From: Candidatus Pelagibacterales bacterium
GTDB taxonomy: Bacteria > Pseudomonadota > Alphaproteobacteria > Pelagibacterales > AG-422-B15
NCBI GenBank assembly: GCA_028412835.1
Contig: JAONQW010000002.1
Location: 62,001-126,000, forward strand
DNA length: 64,000 nucleotides
Direction: 5' to 3'
The position numbers and the translations under genes are program-made. The notes beneath the pieces were generated by a model that saw nothing but the letters and a program-made list of their open reading frames with translations, made no database searches and was not told the origin of the DNA. Shown one piece after another: positions 955 to 56,021 of this stretch (position 1 is its first letter; every line of letters starts with the position of its first letter).

Positions 955-2511
955 ATGAAAAACTTTAAAGAATTAGCATTAGAATCCAAGGCTTGGCCAG
1001 TTGTAGAAGCAAGAAAAATTTTAGATAGAGTAACTAAATCTGGTAATAAAAGTATAAACTTACAAACAGGGTATGGTCCAAGTGGTCTGCCACATATTGG
1101 TACTTTTGGTGAGGTAGCTAGAACTACAATGATCTATAATGCTCTTAAGAATTTAACTGATTTAGAAATAAATCTCCTAACTTTTTCTGATGATTTAGAT
1201 GGTCTTCGAAAAGTTCCAGACAATATTCCAAATACAAAGCCCTTAGAAGAAAACTTGAATAGGCCACTAACATCAATTCCTGATCCATTTGGCACTCATC
1301 CAAGTTTTGGTGAACATAATAATGCTATGTTAAGAGACTTTTTAGATAAATTTGAATTTAATTATGAATTTAAAAGCGCTACAAATTTATATAAGTCAGG
1401 CTTTTTTGATGAACAGTTGATTAATGTTTTAAGGAATCATGATAAAATAAAAAATATTGTTTTACCCACTTTAGGTGTGGATAGACAAAAAACCTATAGC
1501 CCTTTTTTGCCAATATGCCCTGATACAAATAAAGTATTAGAGGTTGAGATCCTTGAGACTAAATTAGATAATAATTCAATTACGTATAAACATAATAATA
1601 AACTTTATGAAGTTCCAGTAACAGGTGGACATTGCAAACTACAATGGAAAGTTGACTGGGCAATGAGATGGATTGCTTTAGGCATTGACTACGAGATGTA
1701 TGGAAAAGACTTAATACCAACATTTCAACTTTCAGCTAAAATTTGTCGTGCTTTAGGAGGTAATCCTCCTGAAAATTATTTTTATGAATTATTCCTTGAT
1801 CAAAATGGTGAGAAAATTTCCAAATCTAAAGGTAATGGCCTGACTATAGATCAGTGGTTAAGCTATGCTCCACCAGAAACACTAAGTTACTTCATGTATC
1901 AGAATCCAAGACGAGCTAAAAAATTATTTTTGGATGTCATTCCAAAATCAACAGACGAATTCATATCTCTATTAAATAAATTTGATAAACAATCAGACAA
2001 AGAAAAATTAGATAGTCCAATTTGGCATATTTTTAACGGAAATCCATTAATGCACAGTGTGCCTGTCAGTTATAATATCTTGCTAAACTTAGTATCCGCT
2101 AGTACTGAAAATGATTCTTCAATAATTTTGGATTTTGTTGAAAGGTATGTTGGCAAAATTGAAAATAAAAATTTAGAATTTTTAAAATCTTTAATTGATT
2201 GTGTCACAAATTTTAATAATGATGTTTCAAAAAATATATCAAACTTTAAAACTCCAAATACAAATGAAATTAAAATATTCAATGATCTAATTAGTAGATT
2301 GCAAAAAATGAAAGATGAAACTGATGCAGAAATAATACAAACTGAGATATATCAAATAGGAAAAGATTATGAGTTTGAAAATCTTAGAGACTGGTTTAAA
2401 TTAGTTTATCAGGTTTTATTTGGTAAAGATGATGGACCAAGATTTGGAACTTTTGTTGCAATTTATGGTATTGAAAAAACTATTAAATTAATTGAAAGTA
2501 GACTTATCTAA
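955..2511 (+). CDS. lysK: Lysyl-tRNA synthetase, class I
   Basis: 518 aa; GPSGLPHIGTFGEVART and KISKSKGNG class I aaRS motifs. Confidence 0.93.
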   Translation: MKNFKELALESKAWPVVEARKILDRVTKSGNKSINLQTGYGPSGLPHIGTFGEVARTTMIYNALKNLTDLEINLLTFSDDLDGLRKVPDNIPNTKPLEENLNRPLTSIPDPFGTHPSFGEHNNAMLRDFLDKFEFNYEFKSATNLYKSGFFDEQLINVLRNHDKIKNIVLPTLGVDRQKTYSPFLPICPDTNKVLEVEILETKLDNNSITYKHNNKLYEVPVTGGHCKLQWKVDWAMRWIALGIDYEMYGKDLIPTFQLSAKICRALGGNPPENYFYELFLDQNGEKISKSKGNGLTIDQWLSYAPPETLSYFMYQNPRRAKKLFLDVIPKSTDEFISLLNKFDKQSDKEKLDSPIWHIFNGNPLMHSVPVSYNILLNLVSASTENDSSIILDFVERYVGKIENKNLEFLKSLIDCVTNFNNDVSKNISNFKTPNTNEIKIFNDLISRLQKMKDETDAEIIQTEIYQIGKDYEFENLRDWFKLVYQVLFGKDDGPRFGTFVAIYGIEKTIKLIESRLI

Positions 2512-2520
2512 CTTATTTCT

Positions 2521-3561
2521 ATGGATAAAATTTTAATAAATCTACTAAGACAATTTAATCCTGAAACTGCACATAATATTTCTCTTAAATTATTAAAATA
2601 CGCCCCAGTATTCCCCAGTGTATATAAACATAAAAGTCTTGAGCTTAAAGTTGCAGATTTAAGTTTTATAAATCCTATTGGAATGGCAGCTGGGTTCGAT
2701 AAAAATGCTGAAGTTTTTAATAGTCTAGCTAAGATTGGCTTTGGGTTTACTGAATGTGGAACTGTTACACTGCATCCTCAGTATGGAAATCCTAAACCAA
2801 GAGTCTTTCGTTATATTGAAGATCAAGCCATAGTAAATAGACTTGGATTTAACAATAAAGGTATAAATAATTTTCTATCTAATCTTGCAAAAAGAAATAA
2901 TTTTGGATCGCCAGTAGGAATTAATATTGGTCCAAACAAGGACAGTAAAAACTTTATTGATGACTATGTCAATCTAGCCAATCAAGTACATGATTATGCA
3001 GACTATATAACAATAAATATATCATCACCCAATACTGAAAATTTAAGAAATTTGCAGAATAAAAATGAACTTGAAGAATTGATAAAAGTATTAGTCTCCT
3101 CGTTAAATGATAAAAAAATACAAAAACCAATCTTTATAAAAATAAACCCAGATGAAAATAAAGAGAGCTATAAGGATATAGTTAATTTAGTAAATAAATA
3201 TTCTATTACAGGCTTAATTATATCCAATACTACAATTCACCGTGGAAATGATTTATCTAATAAAATACAAAATGAATCTGGAGGCCTTTCTGGTAAACCA
3301 CTTTTTAGTAAAGCAAATGAAATTTTAGAATTGCTATATCGAGAAACACAAGGTTCAGTCGTTTTAATTGGGGTAGGTGGTATTTCAAGTGGTTACGATG
3401 CCTATCAAAAAATAAAATTAGGAGCGTCTCTCGTGCAACTTTATTCAGCTTTTGCTTTTCAGGGACCTAATCTTATTAATCGTATGAACAAAGAGCTTGC
3501 ACAGCTAATTAAAAAAGACGGTTTTAATTCTATTTCAGAAGCTATAGGGTCTGGAATATGA
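2521..3561 (+). CDS. pyrD: Dihydroorotate dehydrogenase (quinone)
   Basis: 346 aa; NPIGMAAGFDKNAE, TVTLHPQYGNPKPR, NISSPNTENLRNLQ, GVGGISSGYDAYQKI. Confidence 0.95.
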   Translation: MDKILINLLRQFNPETAHNISLKLLKYAPVFPSVYKHKSLELKVADLSFINPIGMAAGFDKNAEVFNSLAKIGFGFTECGTVTLHPQYGNPKPRVFRYIEDQAIVNRLGFNNKGINNFLSNLAKRNNFGSPVGINIGPNKDSKNFIDDYVNLANQVHDYADYITINISSPNTENLRNLQNKNELEELIKVLVSSLNDKKIQKPIFIKINPDENKESYKDIVNLVNKYSITGLIISNTTIHRGNDLSNKIQNESGGLSGKPLFSKANEILELLYRETQGSVVLIGVGGISSGYDAYQKIKLGASLVQLYSAFAFQGPNLINRMNKELAQLIKKDGFNSISEAIGSGI

Positions 3562-4430
3562 TATTTATTCCTTTATCAGTAAAATCTAATCCTGAAGATT
3601 CTTTAGAAATTAATCGTAAGCCTACTTTAAATAAAAACATATTTATTACTGGGGCTGCATCAGGAATTGGTAAAGCTACAGCCCTATTTTTTTCAAAAAA
3701 AGGCTGGAATGTTGGTTTATTTGATATCAATGAAGAGGGATTACAAGAAGTTGCAAATGAAATTGGACACAATTCCTGTATGTTTAAAAGGCTTGATGTT
3801 ACCAACTTAGAGCAATGGACAGATGCAGTTGATGCTTATAGTGAATATACAAATGGTAAGTGCGATCTTTTTTTCAATAATGCTGGTATTGCTGCTTTCA
3901 CAGGAAGAATTGAAGATATACCAATTCAAGAAGCACATAATATAGTTAATATAAATCTTAATGGGGTTATTAATGGGGTATACAAAGTTTTACCTCTTTT
4001 GAAAAATACAAATCAAAGCATGATTATAAATACAGGTTCAGTAGGAAGTTTTTTACCCGTTCCTGGAGCAGCTGTATATTCAGCAACTAAATTTGCGGTA
4101 AGAGGATTGACAGAAGGTCTTAATATTGAATTTGCAAAACATGGAATTAAAGTTAGTGAGCTTAATCCTTGGTTTACTGAAACACCAATTTTAGATGCAA
4201 AACAATCTACACCATTAATGGATGGGGCTTTGCAACGTGATGTTATAAAGTCTAAATCTGTTATACACACAACAGAAAAAGTTGCTAAACGTGTATTCAA
4301 AATTTATCACACAAGAAGTATTCACAATGTTGTTGGCTTTACTGGCAACTTAGCTGTATTTATAATGCGTTACTGTCCAGCAATTATAAGGCGAATGTCA
4401 CGTAAAATATATGCTGACTATTTTTCTTAA
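3558..4430 (+). CDS. SDR family oxidoreductase
   Basis: FITGAASGIGKATALFF, NNAGIA, YSATKFAV; ATGA overlap with pyrD stop. Confidence 0.85.
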   Translation: MIFIPLSVKSNPEDSLEINRKPTLNKNIFITGAASGIGKATALFFSKKGWNVGLFDINEEGLQEVANEIGHNSCMFKRLDVTNLEQWTDAVDAYSEYTNGKCDLFFNNAGIAAFTGRIEDIPIQEAHNIVNINLNGVINGVYKVLPLLKNTNQSMIINTGSVGSFLPVPGAAVYSATKFAVRGLTEGLNIEFAKHGIKVSELNPWFTETPILDAKQSTPLMDGALQRDVIKSKSVIHTTEKVAKRVFKIYHTRSIHNVVGFTGNLAVFIMRYCPAIIRRMSRKIYADYFS

Positions 4431-5302
4431 ACAGACCTTTTAGCTTTATCGGCCTCATTTGACGATTTAATCATATTTCTTAGTTTATCCCATTCTTCAT
4501 CGGTAACATCCTTAAGCATATCGTAAAAGCTACCAGCGTGGTTTAACCATTGGGCACCATCAATCGTTACTATCTCACCTGTTAAATATTCACATCCATC
4601 AGCCATAAGAAAAGTTGCAAGATTAGCTAATTCTAGCAGTTCTCCAGTTCTTTTCATTGGTATAGCGTCCATTAAATTAGCTCCTTTTCCACCTGGTGCG
4701 AGTCTATCCCAGGCACCTTTTGTAGGAAATGGACCAGGCGCAATTGCATTTAGTCTAATTCCTCTATTGCCCCATTCAGCAGCTAATGACTTTGTCATTG
4801 TCGCTAAACCAGATTTAGACATTGCTGAGGGTACTGTGAAAGGGCCACTGCTATGAACCCAAGTTGTTATAATAGAAATAACACTGCCATTTAATTTGTT
4901 ATCTAACCATCTTTTTCCAATAGCATTGGTTGTGTAAAAAGTTCCATTAAAAACAATATTTGAAATTGCGTTAAAAGCTTTTGGTGACAAATCTTCAGTT
5001 CTGGAAATAAAATTGCCAGCAGCATTATTTACTAAACCTGTTAGAGGTCCTTCAGCCCAAATCTCTTCAACCATATCTTCTATAGCTTCAGGAACTTTAA
5101 TATCACAAGATATACCTTTGACAGATCCACCATGTAACTCCATCATTTCTTTTGCAGATTCATCAAGAACTGATTTTCTTCTCCCACAAATGTATATTTC
5201 AGCACCCAGCTCTAAGTAACGAGTAGCCATTGCCTTACCTAAGCCTGAGCCTCCACCAGTAACTAAAATTCTTTTACCTTTTAATAAATCTTTTTGAAAC
5301 AT
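4427..5302 (-). CDS. SDR family oxidoreductase (2,4-dienoyl-CoA-reductase-like)
   Basis: LVTGGGSGLGKAMATRY, LVNNAAGNF, LTGEIVTIDGAQWL. Confidence 0.85.
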   Translation of the reverse strand: MFQKDLLKGKRILVTGGGSGLGKAMATRYLELGAEIYICGRRKSVLDESAKEMMELHGGSVKGISCDIKVPEAIEDMVEEIWAEGPLTGLVNNAAGNFISRTEDLSPKAFNAISNIVFNGTFYTTNAIGKRWLDNKLNGSVISIITTWVHSSGPFTVPSAMSKSGLATMTKSLAAEWGNRGIRLNAIAPGPFPTKGAWDRLAPGGKGANLMDAIPMKRTGELLELANLATFLMADGCEYLTGEIVTIDGAQWLNHAGSFYDMLKDVTDEEWDKLRNMIKSSNEADKAKRSV

Positions 5303-5312
5303 ACTTCTCTCC

Positions 5313-6041
5313 TTAGCCTAGTGAATTTAAAATTGGAAAATATTCAATAAAAAAGAATGCAATTTCTTGCATTCGATTAGTTAGAATAAGGACTCCAAAT
5401 AAAATTAGCAAGAGTCCCGTAAAAATTTCTATTGGACGAATATAAGACCTTATTTTAATAAGGAATTTTAAAAAGTATCCTATGCCTGCAGCAGCTAACA
5501 AAAATGGAATTCCTAAGCCAGCAGAATAAGTCAATAAAAGCCATATTCCAAAATAAATACTGTCAGAACTTGCAGCGACTGACAAAACACTTCCTAAGAT
5601 TGGACCGATACATGGTGTCCAACCAAAAGCAAATGAGATACCTACAATGTAAGAGCCTATCAGGCCAGGCTTGAAATTCTCTATTTGAAATCTAGTATCT
5701 TTATTTAAAAATTTAAACTGAATTAAATGAGTAAAGTGAATTCCAAAAAGAATTATAATAATTCCTGCTGCAATTCGAAAATAATCTAAATATTCGTATA
5801 AAATATTACTTATTGAACTAGCGGTGGCTCCAAGAAGAGTAAAAACAGTTGAAAAACCTAAAACGAAAGCTACTGCAAACTTAAATACACTTATCTTCTC
5901 TTTATTTTCTTCGTCTATAATTTTATCCAGCGAAGTACCAGCTAGGAAGCATAAGTAGCCAGGCACTATTGGCAAAACACATGGTGAAAGAAAGCTTAAT
6001 AAGCCTGCTAAAAATACAAAAGCAAATGATATCTCTTCCAA
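5313..6041 (-). CDS. Cytochrome c biogenesis protein CcdA family
   Basis: 242 aa polytopic; FLAGLLSFLSPCVLPIVPGYL and FGWTPCIGPILGSVL cysteine motifs. Confidence 0.9.
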   Translation of the reverse strand: MEEISFAFVFLAGLLSFLSPCVLPIVPGYLCFLAGTSLDKIIDEENKEKISVFKFAVAFVLGFSTVFTLLGATASSISNILYEYLDYFRIAAGIIIILFGIHFTHLIQFKFLNKDTRFQIENFKPGLIGSYIVGISFAFGWTPCIGPILGSVLSVAASSDSIYFGIWLLLTYSAGLGIPFLLAAAGIGYFLKFLIKIRSYIRPIEIFTGLLLILFGVLILTNRMQEIAFFFIEYFPILNSLG

Positions 6042-6044
6042 AAC

Positions 6045-6812
6045 TTATGTCTTTCTCAATCTACGAAACATTTCAGCACTAATCCATCCCATAAAGCCTG
6101 CTAAAAATACAGCCAGTAATCCATATATTAATGGAAAGTTGATAGCTAAGTTGTGAATCACTGACTCAATTCCAATTCTTTTAACTTTAAAGTCATAATT
6201 ATAACCTTTCTTTAACTCTGAATTAATCAATAGGTAAACTGATACTGTATAATTACCTACTGGAACAGTATTTGGAATTGGTATATTAGTTTTGAACAAA
6301 TTACCATCAAGAATATCAATTTGTGTTGAATCATTATTTATAGCAAATAAATCAAGATTATTTTTATTTCTTTTCATAGCATTCATAAAATCATGTCTAT
6401 CTTTAGGCATTCTTATTTTGCCCCATTCAATTTCTTGAGTATCTTGATCTGATAATAAAGTAATATTATTTTTATTAAGAATCTCATCGTTAATTTCAGT
6501 TGTACTTATTAAATAATAGAAGCCAGGAACTTCTTTAAAAGTTACTTCAGCATTGTTTAACCAAAATCCAAAAAAAGGTTTCTTTTTTCTTACCTGTACA
6601 GTTTGTGGGGGTCCTTTAACTTCAATAATAACATCACCCTTTGCATCTCTTGGCAATGATGGGTCAGAATAAAATGCACCAAAAACAAGCAAGTCTTGTC
6701 CAGAAAAATTTGCTCCTATGGTAATTTCATTTAGATCTGATCCAATTACTAAAGCACTTGCATTACCTTGATATATAAATAAAGAGATAAAAATAGCTAA
6801 AATATTTCTCAT
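6045..6812 (-). CDS. TIGR02186 family protein
   Basis: Signal peptide, IGANFSGQDLLVFGAF, C-terminal TM; adjacent to a TSUP transporter as is usual for this family. Confidence 0.8.
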   Translation of the reverse strand: MRNILAIFISLFIYQGNASALVIGSDLNEITIGANFSGQDLLVFGAFYSDPSLPRDAKGDVIIEVKGPPQTVQVRKKKPFFGFWLNNAEVTFKEVPGFYYLISTTEINDEILNKNNITLLSDQDTQEIEWGKIRMPKDRHDFMNAMKRNKNNLDLFAINNDSTQIDILDGNLFKTNIPIPNTVPVGNYTVSVYLLINSELKKGYNYDFKVKRIGIESVIHNLAINFPLIYGLLAVFLAGFMGWISAEMFRRLRKT

Positions 6813-6814
6813 TT

Positions 6815-7738
6815 TTAATATAACTCTTTAATTACTGATATTGAAAAAATATCTGTAGGTTGAATCAAAAGATCAGTTCCAATTTTAAATGCTACTGCCA
6901 AAACTATAATTGCTAATAAAGCTCTTAGCTCTTCACCTCTAAATTTATTAGTAAATATTACTCCCAGTTGTGCTCCTATAACCGAAGAGAGAATTAAACT
7001 GAAAGCCAGAACTGCATCTACAGCAAAAGTTGAAGTCGCATGAAGCAAAGTAACAAAAGCAGTTATAAAAATAATTTGAAATAATGATGTACCAATTACT
7101 TTTGAAGTTGGCATACCAAGAAAGTAGATCATTGAAGGTATTAGAATGAAAGATCCTCCAATACCCATTGTTGCAGATAATATTCCTATAAAATATCCAA
7201 TTATGATTGGAGGTATGACGCTAATATATAAATTAGAAGAATAAAATCTTACTTTAAATGGAAGTCTGTGTGCCCAGTTATGATAATGTAACTTTCTTTT
7301 AACAGTTCTTTTTCTAATTCGATCTCTAATCACTTGAGAGCTTTCAATTAACATTAGAGTTCCAATTGAGAATAGAAGTATAAAATAAACTATTGCTAAA
7401 AAAGTTTCAATTTGTCCTGCGTTGGATAGTAGTTTAAAAATCCAAATTCCAGTAAAGGATCCAAATAACCCACCCAATAATAAATACATACCCATTTTAA
7501 CATCTACTAATCCCTGTCTCCAATGTGATAGTGCTCCCGAAACAGATGCGGCTACAATTTGATTTGCAGAAGTAGCCACGGCCACATTTGGTGGAATACC
7601 TATAAACATTAGCAATGGAGTCATTAAGAAACCACCGCCAAGACCTAACATACCAGATAGAAATCCCACAGCTCCACCAAGTGACAATATTATAAAAATA
7701 TTAACTGAGAGCTCTGCAATGGGCAGATAAATATTCAT
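6815..7738 (-). CDS. Sulfite exporter TauE/SafE (TSUP) family transporter
   Basis: GFLSGMLGLGGGFLMTPLL and GILSATMGIGGSFILIPSM duplicated motif. Confidence 0.88.
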   Translation of the reverse strand: MNIYLPIAELSVNIFIILSLGGAVGFLSGMLGLGGGFLMTPLLMFIGIPPNVAVATSANQIVAASVSGALSHWRQGLVDVKMGMYLLLGGLFGSFTGIWIFKLLSNAGQIETFLAIVYFILLFSIGTLMLIESSQVIRDRIRKRTVKRKLHYHNWAHRLPFKVRFYSSNLYISVIPPIIIGYFIGILSATMGIGGSFILIPSMIYFLGMPTSKVIGTSLFQIIFITAFVTLLHATSTFAVDAVLAFSLILSSVIGAQLGVIFTNKFRGEELRALLAIIVLAVAFKIGTDLLIQPTDIFSISVIKELY

Positions 7739-7814
7739 AATTTATGCATTCTTTTTAACTTTAAATATATTATATATGTTGATATTAATTTACTATCAAA
7801 ATAAGAAAGAATTC

Positions 7815-9584
7815 ATGGTTTATAAAAGTCCTATAGCAGACTTCAAATATAATTTAGATATGTTGGGGTATAACTCTTTTGCTGAGTCAATCGATCAGTT
7901 TAAAGACTTCGATACTGAAACTGTAATTAGTGTAGTTGAGCAAGTTGCTAAATTCAATGAACAAGAAATGGTTGATAGCAATAAGAAAGCTGATCGCGAA
8001 GGTATTGTTTATATTAAAGATGGCAAAGAGGGCCCAGAGGTGAAAACTCCAGACTATTTTAAGCCATTGTATCAAAGCGTTATTGAATCAGGATACATTG
8101 GTGCTTCTAATCCAACTGAGTATGGAGGTGGAGGTGCCCCATTTGCTATGGGAATACTCAATGGTGAAATTGGCATCGCATCAAATATGGCTTTCTATAT
8201 GGGGCCTGGCTTAAGCCAAGGAGCAATAAAAGCTATTCTAAAAAAAGGTAACAAAGAATTAAAAGATAAATATCTTCCAAAAATGATTTCAGGTGAATGG
8301 ATGGGAACCATGTGTTTAACTGAACCGCAGTGTGGAACTGATTTAGGGCTTATTAGATCAACTGCAACTCCAGAAGAAGATTACTATAAATTAAATGGAC
8401 AAAAAATCTGGATATCTTTTGGGGAACACGATCTTACGGAAAATATTATTCATCTTGTGCTTGCACGACTACCTGATGCACCAGAAGGCATTAAAGGTAT
8501 AAGTCTATTTCTTGTTCCAAAAAGACTGGATGATAATTCTAGAAATCCAATTTTTTGTGGAGGGTTAGAGCATAAATTAGGCATCATTTCTTCACCAACA
8601 TGTGTAATGAATATGGATGACGCAAGAGGGTGGATGATTGGTGAACCAAATAAAGGTATGGAAGCTATGTTTCTTATGATGAATGATGCAAGACTAAAAG
8701 TAGGACTACAAGGTGTTGCTATGTCAGAGATTGCTTATCAAAATGCATTAGATTTTGCCAAAAATAGAAGACAGATGCGTTCTGTTGTGAAAGATAAACA
8801 AGAGTCTGATGCCAAAGCAGACAATATAATAGTACATCCAGATGTTAGACGAATGCTTATGAATGTTAAGTCAACTACAGAAGCAATGAGATCTCTTTGT
8901 ATTTATACTTCTATGAAAATTGATTTAGCAGAACATCATCCAGATGACTCAGTGAGAGAAACAGCTGAAGATTTTGCAGCTATAATGACACCAATTATCA
9001 AATCATACTGTAGTGAAAAAGGATTTTTAAACTGTTCAGATTCATTGCAAGTCTTGGGAGGTAGTGGTTTTACTAAAGAATATCCATTAGAGCAGTATAT
9101 GCGTGATGTGAGAATTGCTCTAATTTATGAGGGAACTAATGGTATTCAAGCATTAGACTTGGTTGGAAGAAAATTAACCATGCACAAAGGCAGGCTTTTA
9201 CAAAACTTTCAAAAAGAAGTTCAACAATTTATAAATGAAAATAAGGATAACGAAAACATTTCAACTTTTATAAAAGCTTTAGAAGCTGCAGTAAAAGAAG
9301 TAATGGTTTCAACTATGTGGCTGATGCAAAATGGTATGCAAGATCCTGAAAACGCTTTGTCTTCAGCGTCTGACTACTTAAATTTAGTAGCTTTGACTTC
9401 ATTAACTTACATGTGGGCAAGGATGGCAAAATTTTCTGATGGAAAAAATGAACCTCAGCACAAGACTAAAATTAAGACAGGTACTTATTTTATTGATAAG
9501 TTTATTCCAGAATTACAAATGTATTCAAAAAAAGTTCAGTCTGGAAAATCAACCTTAATGGAAATGGAAGTTGAGGAATTTTAA
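7815..9584 (+). CDS. Acyl-CoA dehydrogenase with C-terminal extension (DmdC-like)
   Basis: ~589 aa; MCLTEPQCGTDLGLIRS, QVLGGSGFTKEYPLEQYMRDVRIALIYEGTNGIQALDLVGRK. ATG at 7815 preferred over the upstream in-frame start at 7776. Confidence 0.85.
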   Translation: MVYKSPIADFKYNLDMLGYNSFAESIDQFKDFDTETVISVVEQVAKFNEQEMVDSNKKADREGIVYIKDGKEGPEVKTPDYFKPLYQSVIESGYIGASNPTEYGGGGAPFAMGILNGEIGIASNMAFYMGPGLSQGAIKAILKKGNKELKDKYLPKMISGEWMGTMCLTEPQCGTDLGLIRSTATPEEDYYKLNGQKIWISFGEHDLTENIIHLVLARLPDAPEGIKGISLFLVPKRLDDNSRNPIFCGGLEHKLGIISSPTCVMNMDDARGWMIGEPNKGMEAMFLMMNDARLKVGLQGVAMSEIAYQNALDFAKNRRQMRSVVKDKQESDAKADNIIVHPDVRRMLMNVKSTTEAMRSLCIYTSMKIDLAEHHPDDSVRETAEDFAAIMTPIIKSYCSEKGFLNCSDSLQVLGGSGFTKEYPLEQYMRDVRIALIYEGTNGIQALDLVGRKLTMHKGRLLQNFQKEVQQFINENKDNENISTFIKALEAAVKEVMVSTMWLMQNGMQDPENALSSASDYLNLVALTSLTYMWARMAKFSDGKNEPQHKTKIKTGTYFIDKFIPELQMYSKKVQSGKSTLMEMEVEEF

Positions 9585-9586
9585 AA

Positions 9587-10768
9587 TTAAAACTTTAATT
9601 GTTTTGCGGCTAAGTCCAACATAATTTCTTCTGAACCACCACCAATTGCATTAACTCTTACCTCACGATAGATACGTTCAACTTTGCCTGGACCACTATT
9701 AGCTCTTAGATAGCCAGCACCACCAAGAATTTGCATTGCTTCTCGAGCACAATATTCCATTGTTTTACTTGCCTGTACTTTAAGTAGAGAAAGATCTGCA
9801 GTTGGTTTTTCTCCATTCATAACTCTCCATGTTAGAAGTTCCATGTAAGCTTTTGTTGCGTTCACCATTCTAGACATCTCAGACAGTTTATGTCTAATAA
9901 CTTGATTTTCAATTAGAGGCTTTCCAAACGTGATTCTATCTCTTGCCCACGCAACAGACTCATCAATACAAATTTGAGAATATGCATTCATTCCTGCCGC
10001 AAGACCCAAGCGCTCTTGGCTGAAGTTAGACATAATTCCTGCCCAACCACTATTTTCTCCACCAATTAAATTTTCTACGGGCACTCGACAATCATCAAAG
10101 TATAGAACTGCAGTATCAGATGCAAGCCAGCCCATTTTTTTTAAGGGGGTTTGGGTAAATCCTGGCGTGCCTTTTTCAACGACAATTGCAGATATGCCAG
10201 AAGTTCCAGGACCACCTGTTCTACATGCAATCACATAATAATCAGCACGCATACCCGAAGTAATAAACATTTTTGATCCATTTAAAATATAATCACTTCC
10301 ATCCCTTATCGCCTTAGTCTTAATGCCAGCTACATCAGATCCCCCTGAAGGTTCAGTCACTCCAAGACAAGCAATTTTATCTCCTGCAATAACTGGGGTT
10401 ATATATTTTTCTTTTTGTTCTTCAGTTCCAAGGGCAAGGATTAGAGGTAGTGAAATATTAAGTGACAATAAGCTTGCTGCTATACCGCCACTTCCTTGCG
10501 CAAGTTCCTCTGAAGTTACAATACCATGAAAAATGTCTATACCCTCGAAAGTACCACCATATTGTTCAGGATACCCCATCCCCAATAAGCCAAAATCTCC
10601 AGCTTTTTTATATAATTCTCGAGGAAATTCACCGGCTTCTTCCCACTCTTCAACAAAGGGAGCAATTTCCTTTGCTACAAATTTCTTTAATTCTTCTCGC
10701 CAAGCATGGTGTGACTCATTATAAAATAAATTTTCTTTACCTGGGGCGATTCCAGCTGGGGGTATCAT
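9587..10768 (-). CDS. Acyl-CoA dehydrogenase family protein
   Basis: 393 aa; CLGVTEPSGGSDVAGIKTKA, MQILGGAGYLRANSGPGKVERIYREVRVNAIGGGSEEIMLDLA. Confidence 0.9.
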   Translation of the reverse strand: MIPPAGIAPGKENLFYNESHHAWREELKKFVAKEIAPFVEEWEEAGEFPRELYKKAGDFGLLGMGYPEQYGGTFEGIDIFHGIVTSEELAQGSGGIAASLLSLNISLPLILALGTEEQKEKYITPVIAGDKIACLGVTEPSGGSDVAGIKTKAIRDGSDYILNGSKMFITSGMRADYYVIACRTGGPGTSGISAIVVEKGTPGFTQTPLKKMGWLASDTAVLYFDDCRVPVENLIGGENSGWAGIMSNFSQERLGLAAGMNAYSQICIDESVAWARDRITFGKPLIENQVIRHKLSEMSRMVNATKAYMELLTWRVMNGEKPTADLSLLKVQASKTMEYCAREAMQILGGAGYLRANSGPGKVERIYREVRVNAIGGGSEEIMLDLAAKQLKF

Positions 10769-11613
10769 AGTATTTCACAAATTCCATTTTTAAGAACAAC
10801 CTTATCTCTTTCTTTAACCCTTGACTGAAAATGTACACTATCATCTTTTTTCCATATTTCAGTTACAATGGTTTCACCTGGAAAAACAGGAGATGAAAAC
10901 CTTACGTTAAATCTTTTAAGTTTTTTACTATCTTTTTCACATAAAACTTCAACAATTGATCGGCAAGCAACTCCGTAACTACAAAGTCCATGTAAAATTG
11001 GTTTTGGGTAACCAGCCATTTTTGCAAAACTTGGATCAGAATGTAGTGGGTTTGAATCGCCTGAAAGTCTAAATATTAACGCCTGATCCTTAGTTGTACT
11101 TACTTCATGAACAATGTCAGGCTTACTATCTAATTCAATTGGAGTGGAAGCTGGAACATCTTCCCCACCAAAACCTCCATCACCTCTTGCAAAAGTTTTA
11201 CTTATTAATGTGCACAAAGGAGAGTCATCTTTCTTTAATTTCACTTTTGTTTCAGTCTCTATAATTGCTCCTTTTGATTCTCCTCGGTCAAAACAGTTAA
11301 TAACTCTTGTATCTAAAATAACATCAGCGTTTGAAGGAATAGGTTGATGCAAAGTTATACCTTGTTCACCATGAACAACCATTACCATATTTAATTTAGC
11401 TTTAAGCAATAAAGGAGATTTGTATTGAAAATTAGTTGCCATACTAGGAAAGGCTATCAATCCATTTTCATATACATATTTTAACTCATTAGTATCCATT
11501 GGATCTTTGCCAAGCCCAATACCAAGACTATAAATAATAGAATCTCTTTGAGAATACGATAACTCGAGATTTTTTTCTTCGAGTGACATAATTTCTTCGT
11601 AGTTAATGGCCAT
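10765..11613 (-). CDS. MaoC-type hydratase (enoyl-CoA hydratase 2 family)
   Basis: RLSGDSNPLHSDPSFAKMAGYPKPILHGLCSYG hydratase-2 motif; 4-bp overlap with 9587..10768. Confidence 0.88.
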   Translation of the reverse strand: MAINYEEIMSLEEKNLELSYSQRDSIIYSLGIGLGKDPMDTNELKYVYENGLIAFPSMATNFQYKSPLLLKAKLNMVMVVHGEQGITLHQPIPSNADVILDTRVINCFDRGESKGAIIETETKVKLKKDDSPLCTLISKTFARGDGGFGGEDVPASTPIELDSKPDIVHEVSTTKDQALIFRLSGDSNPLHSDPSFAKMAGYPKPILHGLCSYGVACRSIVEVLCEKDSKKLKRFNVRFSSPVFPGETIVTEIWKKDDSVHFQSRVKERDKVVLKNGICEIL

Positions 11614-49969: not shown

Positions 49970-52900
49970 ATGTATACCAAGATATTTGTTTTAAAAAGCT
50001 ACAACTTATTACTAGTAATTATTACATTAACTGTTTTTTTAAGCACTAGCCTTGAAGCGGCAGATTATTATTGGACTGCTCAGGATGATGGGAGTACAAA
50101 AAATTGGTCTCATAGTCATAACTGGTCAGATAAAAGTGGCAACTCAATAAGTGGTTACCCTAATATTAGAAATGATAATGCTATATTCCAAACTGATGCA
50201 GCAGATGTCACGATAGATCGCTATGTAAGAATGGGAAAAATAACTATAAAAAATGCTTACACTGGAACTATAAATTTAAATGGCAATATATTAAATCCAA
50301 CAAGAGGATTTGCTCAATACAATGGAACAATACTAATACCTGCAAACTCTGACTTCAGAGTACATGGTAATGCAGCTGTTTTATATGATGGTGCTACAAT
50401 TACTTCACAGGGAGATGACAGTAATATTAAAATACAGCACAACTTAATTTTTAAAAATGGTTCAACAATTAATGCACCTAATTCCAATTCTGCATTTGAA
50501 GTCAGAGGAGGATTTAGAAATGAAGGTGGTACATTCAATCATAATAGTGGAACTCTAATAATGAATACTAGTAACAATTGGGGCGAGGCTGCGATCAAAT
50601 TCACTGGAACTGGATCCTTTTATAATATTGATTTTAGAGGAAACGTTAACAAAAAGATACATAATGATATCACAGTTGATAATAATTTATATATTAGAGG
50701 CAATGGTGATCTAATTGGTGGCACATCCAGCAGTGGGAAAAATATAACTATAAAAGGTGATTGGTGGCAACAATCTGGTAAAAACAACTTTACACACGCC
50801 AATGGAACAGTAACTTTTTCTGGATCAAGTAGTCAAAATATAACAAGTAATAATAATTTTCGTAATATCATAATCAATAATCCTTCTGGAGTTTTATTGG
50901 CAAATGACCTTACAAATATAACTTCTACACTAACAATTAATAATGGTTCTACATTGGATATTAATGGACAAGACCTGACAGCTGTGACTTTGGTAAATAA
51001 TGGTAATTTACAACTTTTAGGATCTGAAACAGTCAATATTACTACGATGGATACTGACAGTGGAACTGTTACTTATGATGGTTCTGGGGCTACTGGATTA
51101 GCTGCAGGTGATAATTATTATAATCTAATTTTTAATCAGTCTGGTACATCTACCTTGGATGCAAATTTAGATGTTAATGGGTCAGTTAGCATTTCTAGTG
51201 GAACATTAGATGCCAGCACAAGTAATTATAATATTAATGTTGGTGGTGATTGGACCAATAATGGGAGTTTTATATCTCGATCAGGACTGGTAACTTTTGA
51301 TAATAATTCTGATATATTTGCTGGAGGTACAAGTGCCACAAAAGATTTTAATAATGTAACTTTAAGTGGTGCAGTTGGAAGTCAGTCAGACAATATTCTT
51401 ATTGGTGGCAATTTTATATTAAGTGGCACAGGCACCTGGTATACAAATTGTAATACTATGACAATAAGTGGTAGTACAACAAATAATAGTGGTACGATTT
51501 CAGATACACTTACACCAACTGTATCATTTGATCCTGCAAATAGTTCTTCAACCCATGCTGCAAGTGACAATATTATTCTTACTTTTAATACAGCTATAAG
51601 AAAAGCTTCAGATAATAGTGACTTAACTGATTCTAATGTAGATGCTCACATTACTCTTAAAGATGCTAATTCGAGTGGATCTAATATTAATTTTGATGCA
51701 ACTATAGATGCTAGCGATAAAGTAATTACTATTAACCCTTCATCTGATCTAAATAGTTCACAAGTAGTCTATGTTGCTATTGGCAATACAGTCGAGAATG
51801 TTTGTAACACCGCATTGAGTGCTTCCTCTGCAACATTTACAACTGCCGATTCAACTGACCCCGTCTTAAGTTCATCTAGTCCAGCCGATGAAGCTACTGC
51901 AATTGCTGTAGATACTAATATTGTCTTAACATTTAATGAGGCTGTAGATGCTGAAAGTGGCAATATAATAATTGTTAGGTCTGAAGACGGCTCAACAGTC
52001 GAAACAATTGATGTTACTGACAGTCAAGTATCTGGTTCAGGATCAACAGAAATTACAATAAATCCTTCTGTAACCTTAAATGAGCAGACGGCTTATCATT
52101 TAACCATTGATGAAACTGCATTTGATGATAGCTCAAGTAATTCTTATGTAGGCATAAGTGATACTTCAACAATAAATTTTACTACTGCCGATGTAACAGC
52201 TCCTACTGTAACATTTAATCCAGCAGATAGTGATACTGGAGTAGGACGTGATTCAAATATAAATATTGAATTTAATGAAGCTATAGTAAACGCCGATACC
52301 TCTGAGATAACTAATAGTAATATTGCAAGTTTAATTATACTCAAAGATTCTAATTCAAATGGAAGTGATCTTGCGTTTAGTGCAACAATAGATACAGATA
52401 AAAAAATAATAACTATTGATCCTAATAATAATTTTTCATTAGGTCAGACAGTCTATGTATCAATTTCAGCAGTTGAAGATGCATCAGCCAATGAAACTAG
52501 TTTATCATCATCTACTTTTACTGTGACAACTACTGGCGAGACAATAGCTACTATTATTCCTGCAGATAGTAGCACAGATGTTTTAGCAAGTAGCAATATT
52601 ACTATTGGATTTAATACTGCGATTAGAAATTTAAATGATACTGAAATCACAAATGACAATATACATAGTTTAATAACCCTTAAAGACACTGATACAAACG
52701 GTACTGATATTCCATTTACTATATCAATAAACACTGCCAAAAAAGTTATAACCATCAATCCTATTTCAGACCTCTCCAGTGGTCAGAATATTTATGTTGC
52801 TATTGGGGCAACTGTTGAAGATGCATTCGACAATGCTACAACTGCAGCCTCGTCTATATTCACTATTATCGATAATGCAGCTCCTATTTTTACATTTAAC

Positions 52901-54289
52901 CCAGCTGATTTAGATACAAACGTAATTGTCAGTTCAAATATTATAATTACTTTTAATGAATTAATCAGAAATATTAATAACTCAACTTTAACAGACTCTA
53001 ATGTTGATAGTTTAATTACTTTGAAAGATGAAGATAGCAGTGGTTCTAATATCACCTTCAATGCTACAATTGATGAAGATAAAAAAATAATAACCATTAA
53101 CCCTACAAATAATTTTAATAGCGAGCAAGTTATATACTTAGCTATTGCAGCTGTTGAAGATCAAGCAGGCAATGCCACAGCTGCTACAAATATTTCTTTT
53201 ACAGCTAGAGATAGTGATCCTCCTACTGTGTCATTTTTCCCAAGCAATAGCGATGTAAATGTTTTACGCAATTCAGATATTACAATTTCATTTACTGAAG
53301 TAATTCGTAACTTAAACGATTCCCCAATTACAGACGCTAATATTGATAGTCTAATTACATTAAAACAAAGTAATTCATCTGGTGCTGATATTTTATTTGA
53401 TGCAGTTGTTGACTCAACAAAGGAAAATATCACTATTACCCCAACAAGTAATTTACCCCTGAATCAAGTTATATACGTTGCAATTGGCGCTTCTGTAGAA
53501 GACGAATGGGATAATGCAATAACGGCATCTTCTGCGTCATTTACAACAATTGATGATAGGCTATCAGTAACCTTCGATCCTGCAGATGGAACAACAGGAC
53601 TGCCTGTCAACACAAATGTAATAATGACATTTTCTGACGCAATAAGACATCTAGATGACTCATTAATAACTAGCGCTAATGTTGATGATCTTATAACACT
53701 TGAATATTCTTTTAGTAGTTCACCCATACCATTTGATGCAACTATAGATACAGTAAAAAAAATTATAACAATCAACCCGACCAATAATTTAATTCCAGGA
53801 GATATTATCTATGTTTCAATAGACTCAGTTGAAAATAGTTCTGATGTTGCAACCGGATTAGCCGCTGGAACGTTCAGTGTTGATGATACTATCCCCCCAA
53901 ATGTATTGATTAGTCCATCTAATGGATCTACGAATATTGAAGCTGATGCAATAATAACAATATATTTTGACGAAGAAATTAGACTACTTAACAACACATC
54001 TATAACTAACATTAATGTAGATAGCTTAATTACTTTAAGAGATACTAATTCAAACGGTGCTGATATAGCATTTGATGCTACAATTGATATTCATAATCAA
54101 CTAATATCGATTAATCTTAATGAGAACTTAGCAAGTGAGCAGACGGTCTATATTTTAATTGGACCCTCAGTTGAAGATTCTTATGACAATGCTACTTCAA
54201 CTACATTTTCTGTTTTTTCAACTGGAGACAGTATACCACCAAGTGTAAGCATTGACGCTGTATTAACCGTATCAGAAGGAGGAGCATAA
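49970..54289 (+). CDS. Secreted multi-repeat surface protein (about eight Big_5-like Ig repeats), no beta barrel
   Basis: Signal peptide; repeats TPTVSFDPANSSSTHAASDNIILTFNTAIRKASDNS..., PPTVSFFPSNSDVNVLRNSDITISFTEVIRN... etc.; stops at ...IDAVLTVSEGGA. Confidence 0.85.
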   Translation: MYTKIFVLKSYNLLLVIITLTVFLSTSLEAADYYWTAQDDGSTKNWSHSHNWSDKSGNSISGYPNIRNDNAIFQTDAADVTIDRYVRMGKITIKNAYTGTINLNGNILNPTRGFAQYNGTILIPANSDFRVHGNAAVLYDGATITSQGDDSNIKIQHNLIFKNGSTINAPNSNSAFEVRGGFRNEGGTFNHNSGTLIMNTSNNWGEAAIKFTGTGSFYNIDFRGNVNKKIHNDITVDNNLYIRGNGDLIGGTSSSGKNITIKGDWWQQSGKNNFTHANGTVTFSGSSSQNITSNNNFRNIIINNPSGVLLANDLTNITSTLTINNGSTLDINGQDLTAVTLVNNGNLQLLGSETVNITTMDTDSGTVTYDGSGATGLAAGDNYYNLIFNQSGTSTLDANLDVNGSVSISSGTLDASTSNYNINVGGDWTNNGSFISRSGLVTFDNNSDIFAGGTSATKDFNNVTLSGAVGSQSDNILIGGNFILSGTGTWYTNCNTMTISGSTTNNSGTISDTLTPTVSFDPANSSSTHAASDNIILTFNTAIRKASDNSDLTDSNVDAHITLKDANSSGSNINFDATIDASDKVITINPSSDLNSSQVVYVAIGNTVENVCNTALSASSATFTTADSTDPVLSSSSPADEATAIAVDTNIVLTFNEAVDAESGNIIIVRSEDGSTVETIDVTDSQVSGSGSTEITINPSVTLNEQTAYHLTIDETAFDDSSSNSYVGISDTSTINFTTADVTAPTVTFNPADSDTGVGRDSNINIEFNEAIVNADTSEITNSNIASLIILKDSNSNGSDLAFSATIDTDKKIITIDPNNNFSLGQTVYVSISAVEDASANETSLSSSTFTVTTTGETIATIIPADSSTDVLASSNITIGFNTAIRNLNDTEITNDNIHSLITLKDTDTNGTDIPFTISINTAKKVITINPISDLSSGQNIYVAIGATVEDAFDNATTAASSIFTIIDNAAPIFTFNPADLDTNVIVSSNIIITFNELIRNINNSTLTDSNVDSLITLKDEDSSGSNITFNATIDEDKKIITINPTNNFNSEQVIYLAIAAVEDQAGNATAATNISFTARDSDPPTVSFFPSNSDVNVLRNSDITISFTEVIRNLNDSPITDANIDSLITLKQSNSSGADILFDAVVDSTKENITITPTSNLPLNQVIYVAIGASVEDEWDNAITASSASFTTIDDRLSVTFDPADGTTGLPVNTNVIMTFSDAIRHLDDSLITSANVDDLITLEYSFSSSPIPFDATIDTVKKIITINPTNNLIPGDIIYVSIDSVENSSDVATGLAAGTFSVDDTIPPNVLISPSNGSTNIEADAIITIYFDEEIRLLNNTSITNINVDSLITLRDTNSNGADIAFDATIDIHNQLISINLNENLASEQTVYILIGPSVEDSYDNATSTTFSVFSTGDSIPPSVSIDAVLTVSEGGA
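51509..54230 (+). repeat. Tandem ~340-nt Big_5/Ig-like protein repeats
   Basis: Recurring FxPADxxTxVxxxSNIxIxFNEAIRNxxxxxITxxNVDSLITLKDxxSxGxxIxFxATIDxxKKIITINPxxxLxxxQxVYVAI. Confidence 0.8.
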
Positions 54290-55917
54290 TGTCTAAAATG
54301 ATTAAGATAATATGTTTCTTAGCGTTTGCTTCAACTTCAAATCTTGCATACGCAGTTAATATTGCAACTAATTCAGATATAACTTTTTCATTTACAGAGG
54401 CGGTAAGATTAATAGATAACACAATTCTGACTAACGAAAATGTTGGAAGTTTAATTACTCTAAAAAATACTGACGCTAGTGGCACTAATCTTTCTTTTAC
54501 CGCTACAGTCAATTCAGCAAAAACGATAATTACAATTAATCCTACCAATAACTTTACTAGTGGTCAGATAATTTATGCTTATATTGGTGCAACCGTTGAA
54601 GATTTCAATGACAATGTAATACCTGCGACTAGTAAAACTTTTACGGCAGAATACCTCGTTACGGACTTAACAAACCCTCTTGATGATGAGGATTTTGTTG
54701 GATTGCTTAAGGCACAAACTGAAACAGCAAAAAGATTTATTCAGCAATCTACAACTTCAGTATTAAAGCGCATGGAGTGGTTAAGAAGAAACAAAAATGA
54801 AAACGAGTTATCTCATCAGGGAGTGAGCGTTAATTTCATTGATGCAGATTTTAACAATCTTTCAAATACACTGCAATTTTCAAATTTCCTTAACCAGTCA
54901 GCAGATTTATTTTCCAATAATTGGGCTGTGTGGAGTGAAGGCAATATTACTTTAGGAGAAGTCGATGCAAATGGAAATTCATCATTAAGAGATGTTAAAA
55001 CAAATGGTATAACATTTGGTATTGATAATAAAATTGATGCAAATCATATTTTAGGTCTGGCACTAAGAATAGGTAAGGATAATGTTGATGTTGGGTCTTT
55101 GGGTAATGCATTAGATACTGATACTTATAGCTTATCTCTTTATGGAACTATGCCATACGATGACAAAACATATATTGATGGCACTTTAGGAATCAGTTTG
55201 CTGGATATGAATCTTACAAGAAGTCATGCTTCAGGAACTTTAACTGGAAGTAGAGAAGGTAAACAATTATATGGTTCATTAGTATACAGTGCGGCACTAG
55301 AAGAAAATTTAATCAAAATAACACCATATGGTCGAATAGATGGAGGCTATACAATTTTATCTAGCTTTAGTGATACAGGAACAGTTGCCGCAATAAAATA
55401 TGATGAACAAAAGATTACATCAGCGATGATATCCCTTGGTATTTTAGTAGATGACGAGATTGAAATAGGTAATCTTAAGTTAAATAGGTATGGACGACTT
55501 GAATATGGAAAAGACATAAGTTCTTCATCAGATGCTACAGTTTCTTATGTAGCTGTGCCCAACACAAAATATATTCTCAGTATTGATGATGAGGAATCGA
55601 ATAATATTAGAGCTGCGTTTGGTACCGATATTGAAACCCAATACAAATGGTCATATCAATTTGATTATGAGGTAAACTATAGATCGGGTTTATCTCATCT
55701 TAATACATTTAGTGCGGCAGCATTCTATGAATTAGGGCTGGATAGTATTATCAGTCTCTCGTTAGACAGTGAGCTTTCAACACATTCAATAGCAAAACTT
55801 GAGTTAGACACCAGGCTAAAGAATGGATGGTTTTTAAATGGAGCATACGAGATGAAAGATTATAGAGATCTCAGTAATGAAAATATATTAAGGCTTCAAG
55901 CGGTAAGATATTTTTGA
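54289..55917 (+). CDS. Autotransporter beta-barrel protein with own signal peptide and one partial Big_5-like repeat
   Basis: TAATG overlap with upstream gene; AGGAGG SD 6 nt before ATG; signal MSKMIKIICFLAFASTSNLAYA; partial repeat; C-terminal barrel ending ...LQAVRYF. Confidence 0.82.
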   Translation: MSKMIKIICFLAFASTSNLAYAVNIATNSDITFSFTEAVRLIDNTILTNENVGSLITLKNTDASGTNLSFTATVNSAKTIITINPTNNFTSGQIIYAYIGATVEDFNDNVIPATSKTFTAEYLVTDLTNPLDDEDFVGLLKAQTETAKRFIQQSTTSVLKRMEWLRRNKNENELSHQGVSVNFIDADFNNLSNTLQFSNFLNQSADLFSNNWAVWSEGNITLGEVDANGNSSLRDVKTNGITFGIDNKIDANHILGLALRIGKDNVDVGSLGNALDTDTYSLSLYGTMPYDDKTYIDGTLGISLLDMNLTRSHASGTLTGSREGKQLYGSLVYSAALEENLIKITPYGRIDGGYTILSSFSDTGTVAAIKYDEQKITSAMISLGILVDDEIEIGNLKLNRYGRLEYGKDISSSSDATVSYVAVPNTKYILSIDDEESNNIRAAFGTDIETQYKWSYQFDYEVNYRSGLSHLNTFSAAAFYELGLDSIISLSLDSELSTHSIAKLELDTRLKNGWFLNGAYEMKDYRDLSNENILRLQAVRYF

Positions 55918-55947: not shown

Positions 55948-56021
55948 TGGTGCCCCTAGCTGGTTACGCTCCAGCGGCTGATCATTACCAATGACCTGCT
56001 TTACTATTAAGCGATAGGGGC
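55948..56021 (-). tRNA. tRNA-like cloverleaf, anticodon GGU (Thr-like), encoded CCA, non-canonical D and T loops
   Basis: Minus strand: GCCCCTA TC GCTT AATAGTA AAGC A GGTCA TTGGTAA TGATC AGCC GCTGG AGCGTAA CCAGC TAGGGGC A CCA. Stems 7/4/5/5 bp (one G-U), 7-nt anticodon and T loops. Confidence 0.55.

What the first reader, a model, noticed from the sequence alone, without database searches (positions are those of the whole stretch)
55948..56021. tRNA-like cloverleaf (GGU, CCA-ending) lacking the canonical elbow motifs
On the minus strand 74 nt fold with exact tRNA geometry: 7-bp perfect acceptor GCCCCTA/TAGGGGC, discriminator A plus encoded CCA, 4-bp D stem, 5-bp anticodon stem, TTGGTAA loop (anticodon GGU), 5-bp T stem. 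The D loop is AATAGTA (no G18G19) and the T loop AGCGTAA (no T54T55C56). G1-C72, C2-G71, G35 and U36 match known bacterial threonyl identity elements. Established precedent: staphylococcal tRNA-Gly species lacking GG/TPsiC motifs are diverted from translation to peptidoglycan synthesis. This could be a non-ribosomal aminoacyl donor, a regulatory tRNA mimic, or a decayed tRNA; stem preservation argues against simple decay. It sits right after the autotransporter gene.
Basis: partly seen in the sequence, partly recalled or inferred. Interest (0 to 1): 0.78.

Follow-up and report, generated by a model that had tools for sequence, protein, structure and literature searches.

The report
Housekeeping threonine tRNA with alternative elbow
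The flagged RNA is very probably an ordinary working threonine tRNA of a SAR11-type ocean bacterium, but the contact that bends it uses a different pair of bases (A18 with G55 instead of G18 with U55), a swap that recurs in many phage and SAR11 tRNAs.

Summary
The cloverleaf is real: it is the only Rfam hit in the window (50.9 bits), and ARAGORN misses it. It is not a decayed tRNA and probably not a non-ribosomal donor. In its family each of the 45 genomes with a TTGGTAA-type tRNA-Thr(GGU) has exactly one (33 of this type, 12 of a second non-canonical type, never both, none canonical). So it is most likely the housekeeping tRNA that reads ACU/ACC. Stems covary perfectly (9 of 21 pairs changed on both sides, none broken) while the D, anticodon and T loops never change. 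This swap is systematic. In phage tRNAs that no search pattern selected, G18/U55 = 694, A18/G55 = 96, discordant = 10. It appears in 28 anticodons and in 116 of 148 genomes of the window's order (Pelagibacterales), but no other genome among 399 sampled across the phylum. Many of that order also lack TruB, the Psi55 synthase, though the window's family keeps it. I read this as an alternative, functional tRNA elbow that I could not find described. Why it is kept is unknown.

The parts
55948..56021 (-). tRNA-Thr(GGU) gene, 74 nt with encoded CCA
   Evidence: Rfam RF00005 50.9 bits; conserved with compensatory stem changes in relatives
56015..56021 (-). acceptor stem 5' strand GCCCCTA (pairs with 55952-55958); G1-C72 and C2-G71 as in tRNA-Thr
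   Evidence: sequence; 3 of 7 pairs change on both sides between relatives, none broken
56002..56008 (-). D loop AATAGTA: A14 A15 T16 A18 G19 T20 A21; A18 at 56005 replaces G18, G19 at 56004 kept
   Evidence: Rfam alignment; invariant in all six distinct sequences
55985..55991 (-). anticodon loop TTGGTAA, anticodon GGU at 55987-55989
   Evidence: sequence; invariant
55964..55970 (-). T loop AGCGTAA: A54 G55 C56 G57 U58 A59 A60; G55 at 55969, C56 at 55968
   Evidence: Rfam alignment; invariant; same loop with A18 in phage and SAR11 tRNAs
55948..55951 (-). discriminator A73 and encoded CCA
   Evidence: sequence

Best explanation
This is the housekeeping tRNA-Thr(GGU) of a Pelagibacterales (SAR11-order) genome. 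It is charged by ThrRS and reads ACU/ACC in translation. Its D and T loops form the usual L-shaped elbow with a coordinated alternative set of tertiary contacts: A18 opposite G55 instead of G18-Psi55, A54-U58 instead of U54-A58, with G19-C56 kept. The same coordinated set evolved or spread in many tRNAs of phages and of SAR11. Such tRNAs cannot carry Psi55 or T54, because neither uridine is there. SHOWN by computation: the tRNA structure, selection on stems and loops, single-copy and mutually exclusive distribution, the 18-55 association, the loss of TruB in many SAR11 genomes. INFERRED: that it is charged and used in translation, that A18 and G55 touch, and that loss or bypass of T54/Psi55 modification let the alternative elbow arise.
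For: Rfam tRNA 50.9 bits. 25 of 60 relatives carry it. Stems: 9 of 21 pairs with changes on both sides, 126 of 126 cells paired, partners slid by 1-3 columns give 0 double changes; D, anticodon and T loops invariant. In family f1, 45 of 54 genomes have a TTGGTAA-type Thr(GGU) tRNA: 33 type A (AGCGTAA) and 12 type B (GTCAGTA), never both, none with TTCRA. The 28 tRNAs of G006 (100% complete) and the 24 of G000 contain no other Thr(GGU); Thr(UGU) is canonical. 180 of 329 Thr codons in seven window ORFs are ACU/ACC. Alternative elbow: loop-blind perfect cloverleaves give G18/U55 833, A18/G55 191, discordant 12; phage tRNAs not selected by any pattern give 694/96/10, Fisher p 4.6e-111. Exhaustive viral scans: G18 with AGCGTAA or AGCATAA 1 hit against 22 true tRNAs with A18 for the longer variable loop and more than 119 hits for the shorter one (84 distinct true cloverleaves); A18 with TTCGA 61 string hits, 0 true tRNAs. 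Pelagibacterales: 116 of 148 genomes have pattern hits, nearly all genuine A18/G55 tRNAs for Val, Phe, His or Thr.
Against: No expression, charging or structure data. G000 is only 72% complete, and G006 also lacks tRNA-Asn and tRNA-Cys in its bins, so absence of another Thr(GGU) in a single genome is not decisive. The family pattern requires TTGGTAA and would miss an ATGGTAA-loop tRNA like the one in G037. The 18-55 association counts sequences, not independent events. The A18-G55 contact is inferred from covariation. TruB loss does not explain the window's own family, which keeps TruB.
Confidence: 0.83

Rival explanations
1. A tRNA diverted from translation: a Thr-tRNA donor for a non-ribosomal reaction, like staphylococcal tRNA-Gly for peptidoglycan.
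For: Elbow motifs depart from canon; the loops are invariant; stems and Thr identity elements are kept.
Against: It is the only Thr(GGU) tRNA found, ACU/ACC codons are abundant, and the same elbow occurs on tRNAs of 28 anticodons, which argues for a general structural variant and not a pathway for one amino acid.
Confidence: 0.05
2. A decayed tRNA or att-site remnant of mobile elements.
For: The gene is an insertion hot spot: partial copies lie near it in G011, G028 and G008, flanks differ between species and type A is identical across genera.
Against: All stems are kept through compensatory changes and the loops are invariant; it is single-copy and usually the only Thr(GGU) tRNA.
Confidence: 0.03
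3. The alternative elbow is an adaptation for escape: it evades elbow-reading enzymes (TruB, TrmA, TrmH) or tRNA-cutting defence nucleases, was selected in phages, and reached bacterial chromosomes with mobile elements.
For: Common in phage tRNA arrays of many anticodons; type A and type B of the Thr gene swap at the same ggt-side locus; type A is 100% identical between genera whose other tRNAs average 91% identity, with only 1 of 21 identical; islands at the gene carry restriction-modification genes.
Against: No nuclease or enzyme was shown to discriminate; SAR11 flanks show that Val and His copies are at conserved SAR11 loci, which is vertical inheritance; no phage copy of the exact type A gene was found in the phage collection.
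Confidence: 0.25
4. Near-neutral drift after loss of T54/Psi55 modification: without TruB and TrmA/TrmFO, U54 and U55 lose their special value and other isosteric elbows are tolerated.
For: TruB is not found in 88 of 106 good Pelagibacterales genomes (all of genera g6, g9, g10), and there the alternative elbow is most common (about 82 of 87 TruB-less f2 genomes against 1 of 7 with TruB, my count from the tables). TrmFO: only MnmG-like hits far below the cut-off.
Against: The f2 contrast follows genus boundaries, so it is one or few events. The window's family keeps TruB and still has A18/G55 on tRNA-Thr. Phage tRNAs act in hosts that are not known here.
Confidence: 0.35

Closest known systems
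canonical bacterial tRNA-Thr(GGU) (e.g. G037 of the same order, GCCCACATAGCTCAGTTGGTAGAGC...GTTCAATTC)
   Same: cloverleaf, anticodon GGU, G1-C72 and C2-G71, discriminator A, CCA, G19 and C56
   Different: A18, A54, G55, U58; 7-nt D loop AATAGTA and 4-nt variable loop; missed by ARAGORN
SAR11 tRNA-Val(GAC) and tRNA-His(GUG) with AATAGTA/AGCGTAA loops
   Same: identical D and T loops on other tRNAs of the same order
   Different: other amino acids; 5-nt variable loop in Val; loci conserved across SAR11
Acinetobacter phage Ac42 tRNA-Met (HM032710, 80657-80731) and many IMG/VR phage tRNAs
   Same: same AATAGTA/AGCGTAA elbow; annotated simply as tRNA-Met
   Different: phage-borne; a tRNA-Met near the same place in phage 133 has the same acceptor stem but the canonical GG/TTCGA elbow
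staphylococcal non-proteinogenic tRNA-Gly (own knowledge)
   Same: departure from G18G19 / T54 Psi55
   Different: extra gene copies beside canonical tRNA-Gly, serving peptidoglycan; here no canonical copy was found and the elbow keeps G19 and C56

Membership tests
tRNA (RF00005) | cloverleaf with 7/4/5/5 stems, 7-nt anticodon and T loops, CCA | tested here: met
   Rfam 50.9 bits over the gathering score 29; structure and covariation
tRNA-Thr(GGU) | anticodon GGU and Thr identity elements G1-C72, C2-G71, G35, U36 | tested here: met
   sequence, invariant in relatives
tRNA-Thr(GGU) | charged with threonine | not testable with these tools
   needs acid northern blot or an in vitro charging assay
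canonical tRNA elbow | G18-Psi55 and U54-A58 | tested here: not met
   A18, G55, A54, U58
canonical tRNA elbow | G19-C56 | tested here: met
   both present in the Rfam alignment and invariant
non-ribosomal aminoacyl donor tRNA (staphylococcal type) | present in addition to a canonical isoacceptor that serves translation | tested here: not met
   no other Thr(GGU) in G000 or G006; single-copy mutually exclusive types in 45 genomes
decayed tRNA | broken stems, unconstrained loops | tested here: not met
   126 of 126 cells paired, 9 pairs with double changes, loops invariant

The most novel reading that the evidence does not exclude
Nature uses a second, coordinated tRNA elbow (A18 with G55, often with A54-U58 or G54-G58) that is widespread in phage tRNAs and in the housekeeping tRNAs of SAR11. 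It dispenses with the supposedly universal G18-Psi55 contact and is selected because it escapes elbow-dependent modification or cleavage.
Probability: 0.25. Interest if true: 0.85.

Novelty: new variant of a known kind. Interest (0 to 1): 0.62.

Why it matters
G18-Psi55 is described as a universal elbow contact (PMC4810234 calls Psi55 universally conserved). A systematic alternative in one of the ocean's most abundant bacterial groups and in many phages gives a natural set of matched tRNAs to test what T54, Psi55 and Gm18 are for, and it affects annotation: ARAGORN misses this gene. It also gives a way to test whether phages use elbow changes to protect their tRNAs.

Tried and rejected
(1) I first took the order for SAR86 and read identical Val/His genes in SAR11 contigs as transfer between classes; the flanks showed that the f2 genomes are themselves SAR11, so that claim was dropped. 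(2) A loose canonical-Thr pattern TTGGTAAN{13,18}TTCRA gave only noise, about as many hits as its reversed control. (3) The 61 viral hits for A18 with TTCGA looked like counter-examples but none is a true tRNA with that D loop; several resemble tmRNA. (4) Phage origin of the exact gene: no full-length relative in the phage collection. (5) Promoter and terminator scan around the gene: nothing informative. (7) Literature: full-text searches for A18/G55, G18-U55, noncanonical elbows and phage tRNA T loops found no description; the library holds only open-licence papers, so older structural work on 54-58 and 18-55 variants may exist.

Full report
WHAT IS THERE. They are the only Rfam hit in the 64-kb window: tRNA, 50.9 bits against a gathering score of 29. 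ARAGORN reports no tRNA. The strand folds at -27.8 kcal/mol, z -3.07. The covariance-model alignment fixes the numbering. The D loop AATAGTA is A14 A15 T16 A18 G19 T20 A21 and the T loop AGCGTAA is A54 G55 C56 G57 U58 A59 A60. So G19 and C56, the outer elbow pair, are kept; position 18 is A, 55 is G, and 54/58 have exchanged U and A.

SELECTION. 25 of 60 relatives have the gene, most of them identical over 74 nt, with a few variants. Six distinct sequences, including one from another alphaproteobacterial family, were aligned. All 126 cells are paired, 9 of 21 pairs have changes on both sides, and sliding the partners by 1 to 3 columns gives no double change. The D loop, anticodon loop and T loop do not vary at all. 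This is a functional tRNA, not a remnant.

HOUSEKEEPING ROLE. The window's genome (1.02 Mb, 36 contigs, 72% complete) has 24 tRNA hits and relative G006 (100% complete) has 28. The only other Thr tRNA is a canonical Thr(UGU). Across 54 genomes of the family, a pattern for tRNAs with a TTGGTAA anticodon loop finds tRNA-Thr(GGU) in 45. 33 have this type (A) and 12 have a second type (B, T loop GTCAGTA, with G18 G19); no genome has both and none has a TTCRA T loop with this anticodon loop. The more distant G037 has a canonical Thr(GGU) and G043 a type B-like one. In seven ORFs of the window 180 of 329 Thr codons are ACU or ACC. Charging and use in translation are inferred.

THE ALTERNATIVE ELBOW IS SYSTEMATIC. 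A scan of IMG/VR for this D loop and T loop in tRNA spacing found 23 loci, 22 of them full cloverleaves with several different anticodons. The exact loops also occur in SAR11 tRNA-Val(GAC) and tRNA-His(GUG) and in Acinetobacter phage Ac42 tRNA-Met. In the related phage 133 a tRNA-Met close to the same gene, gp57B, has the same acceptor stem but the canonical GG/TTCGA elbow. Controls: G18 with the AGC[A/G]TAA T loop gave 1 hit in total, while A18 with it gave 22 true tRNAs and, for the shorter variable loop, more than 119 hits, of which 84 distinct sequences pass the cloverleaf filter. A18 with TTCGA gave 61 string hits but no true tRNA. For T loops TGCRA, which keep U54 and A58, there were 65 distinct true tRNAs with A18 and 2 with G18. 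So the coupling is between positions 18 and 55, and 54/58 varies partly independently (U-A, A-U, G-G, C-A, A-A). A finder that requires perfect stems but looks at no loop base gave, on all DNA fetched, G18/U55 833, A18/G55 191 and 12 discordant, with A18/G55 on 28 anticodons. Restricted to phage tRNAs that none of my patterns had selected, the counts are 694, 96 and 10 (Fisher p 4.6e-111). Sequences are related, so the p-value overstates independence; about a quarter of tRNAs could not be assigned at position 18 by this simple rule.

DISTRIBUTION. The window's order is Pelagibacterales: flanks of the Val gene in family f2 match SAR11 contigs. In that order 116 of 148 genomes have pattern hits; nearly all are genuine tRNAs (Val, Phe, His, Thr), with a handful of chance strings. 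In a sample of 387 genomes of the class the strict loop pair occurs only in this order and in one other family (f10, a Thr(GGU)). Among 399 genomes sampled across the phylum with the looser pattern, the only match that is visibly a tRNA is the window's own (judged by eye).

WHY. A U55-less tRNA cannot carry Psi55 and a U54-less one cannot carry T54. TruB (Psi55 synthase) is found in 50 of 148 Pelagibacterales genomes and not found in 88 of 106 good ones, which are whole genera of f2. TrmFO gave only weak MnmG-like hits. In f2 the alternative elbow is concentrated in the genera without TruB, but the window's family keeps TruB. Loss of modification is therefore a plausible door-opener in f2 but not a requirement. 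The wide use by phages suggests either tolerance or an advantage; a selective reason (escape from modification enzymes or nucleases) is a hypothesis only.

GENE MOBILITY. Type A is identical between genera whose other tRNAs average 91% identity, with one of 21 identical. Types A and B sit at the same locus next to a gamma-glutamyltransferase gene in several genomes. Insertions lie on the 5' side of the gene and leave 5' fragments of it: 38 nt in G011 with 8.4 kb of cargo (PLD/SNF2 helicase and type IIG restriction-modification genes), and 20 nt in G028 with 5.3 kb carrying a urease operon. No recombinase gene of at least 80 aa was seen in either. The gene is thus an insertion hot spot, which may explain the changing flanks and the replacement of one type by the other.

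NOVELTY. Reviews held in the library describe G18-Psi55 as a conserved contact, Psi55 as universally conserved, and list noncanonical tRNAs without this variant (PMC4810234; PMC7609411; PMC7912444). Full-text searches found no description of an A18/G55 elbow in bacterial or phage tRNAs. Older structural and suppressor-tRNA work that I remember on 54-58 and 18-55 variants is not in the library, so novelty is likely but not certain.

Noticed in passing
L450 (G011:C2) 2443-10986: 8.4-kb insertion between a 38-nt 5' copy of the tRNA and the intact gene; carries a PLD/SNF2 helicase gene and a type IIG restriction-modification gene, no recombinase ORF of at least 80 aa.
   Followed up: partly
L451 (G028:C3) 2020-7449: 5.3-kb insertion between a 20-nt 5' copy and the intact tRNA gene; carries a complete-looking urease operon (my reading of the ORFs, not domain-tested).
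   Followed up: partly
L452 (G008:C10) 3864-3908: Decayed 3' copy (nt 30-74, 84% identical) about 2 kb from the intact gene, followed by a duplicated flank.
   Followed up: no
L454 (G024:C1), near 109090-109133 of the contig: Only the 3' half of a type B tRNA-Thr(GGU) is present at this locus; the 5' half is replaced by other sequence. An intact copy was not looked for.
   Followed up: no
Pelagibacterales genera g6, g9, g10 (e.g. G038, G043): TruB (TIGR00431), found in all 14 control genomes, is not found in 88 of 106 good genomes of the order; these lineages apparently lack Psi55 synthase.
   Followed up: partly
G043:C1 97115-97188 and type B genes (L453, L455, L456): A third elbow variant on Thr(GGU): G18 G19 and U55 kept, but 54/58 are G/G (T loop GTCAGTA).
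   Followed up: partly
window 49970-55917: Two adjacent genes: a 1439-aa protein with eight Big_5 Ig-like repeats and a 542-aa protein with one Big_5 repeat and an autotransporter beta domain, overlapping by one base; possibly a split or two-partner surface protein.
   Followed up: partly
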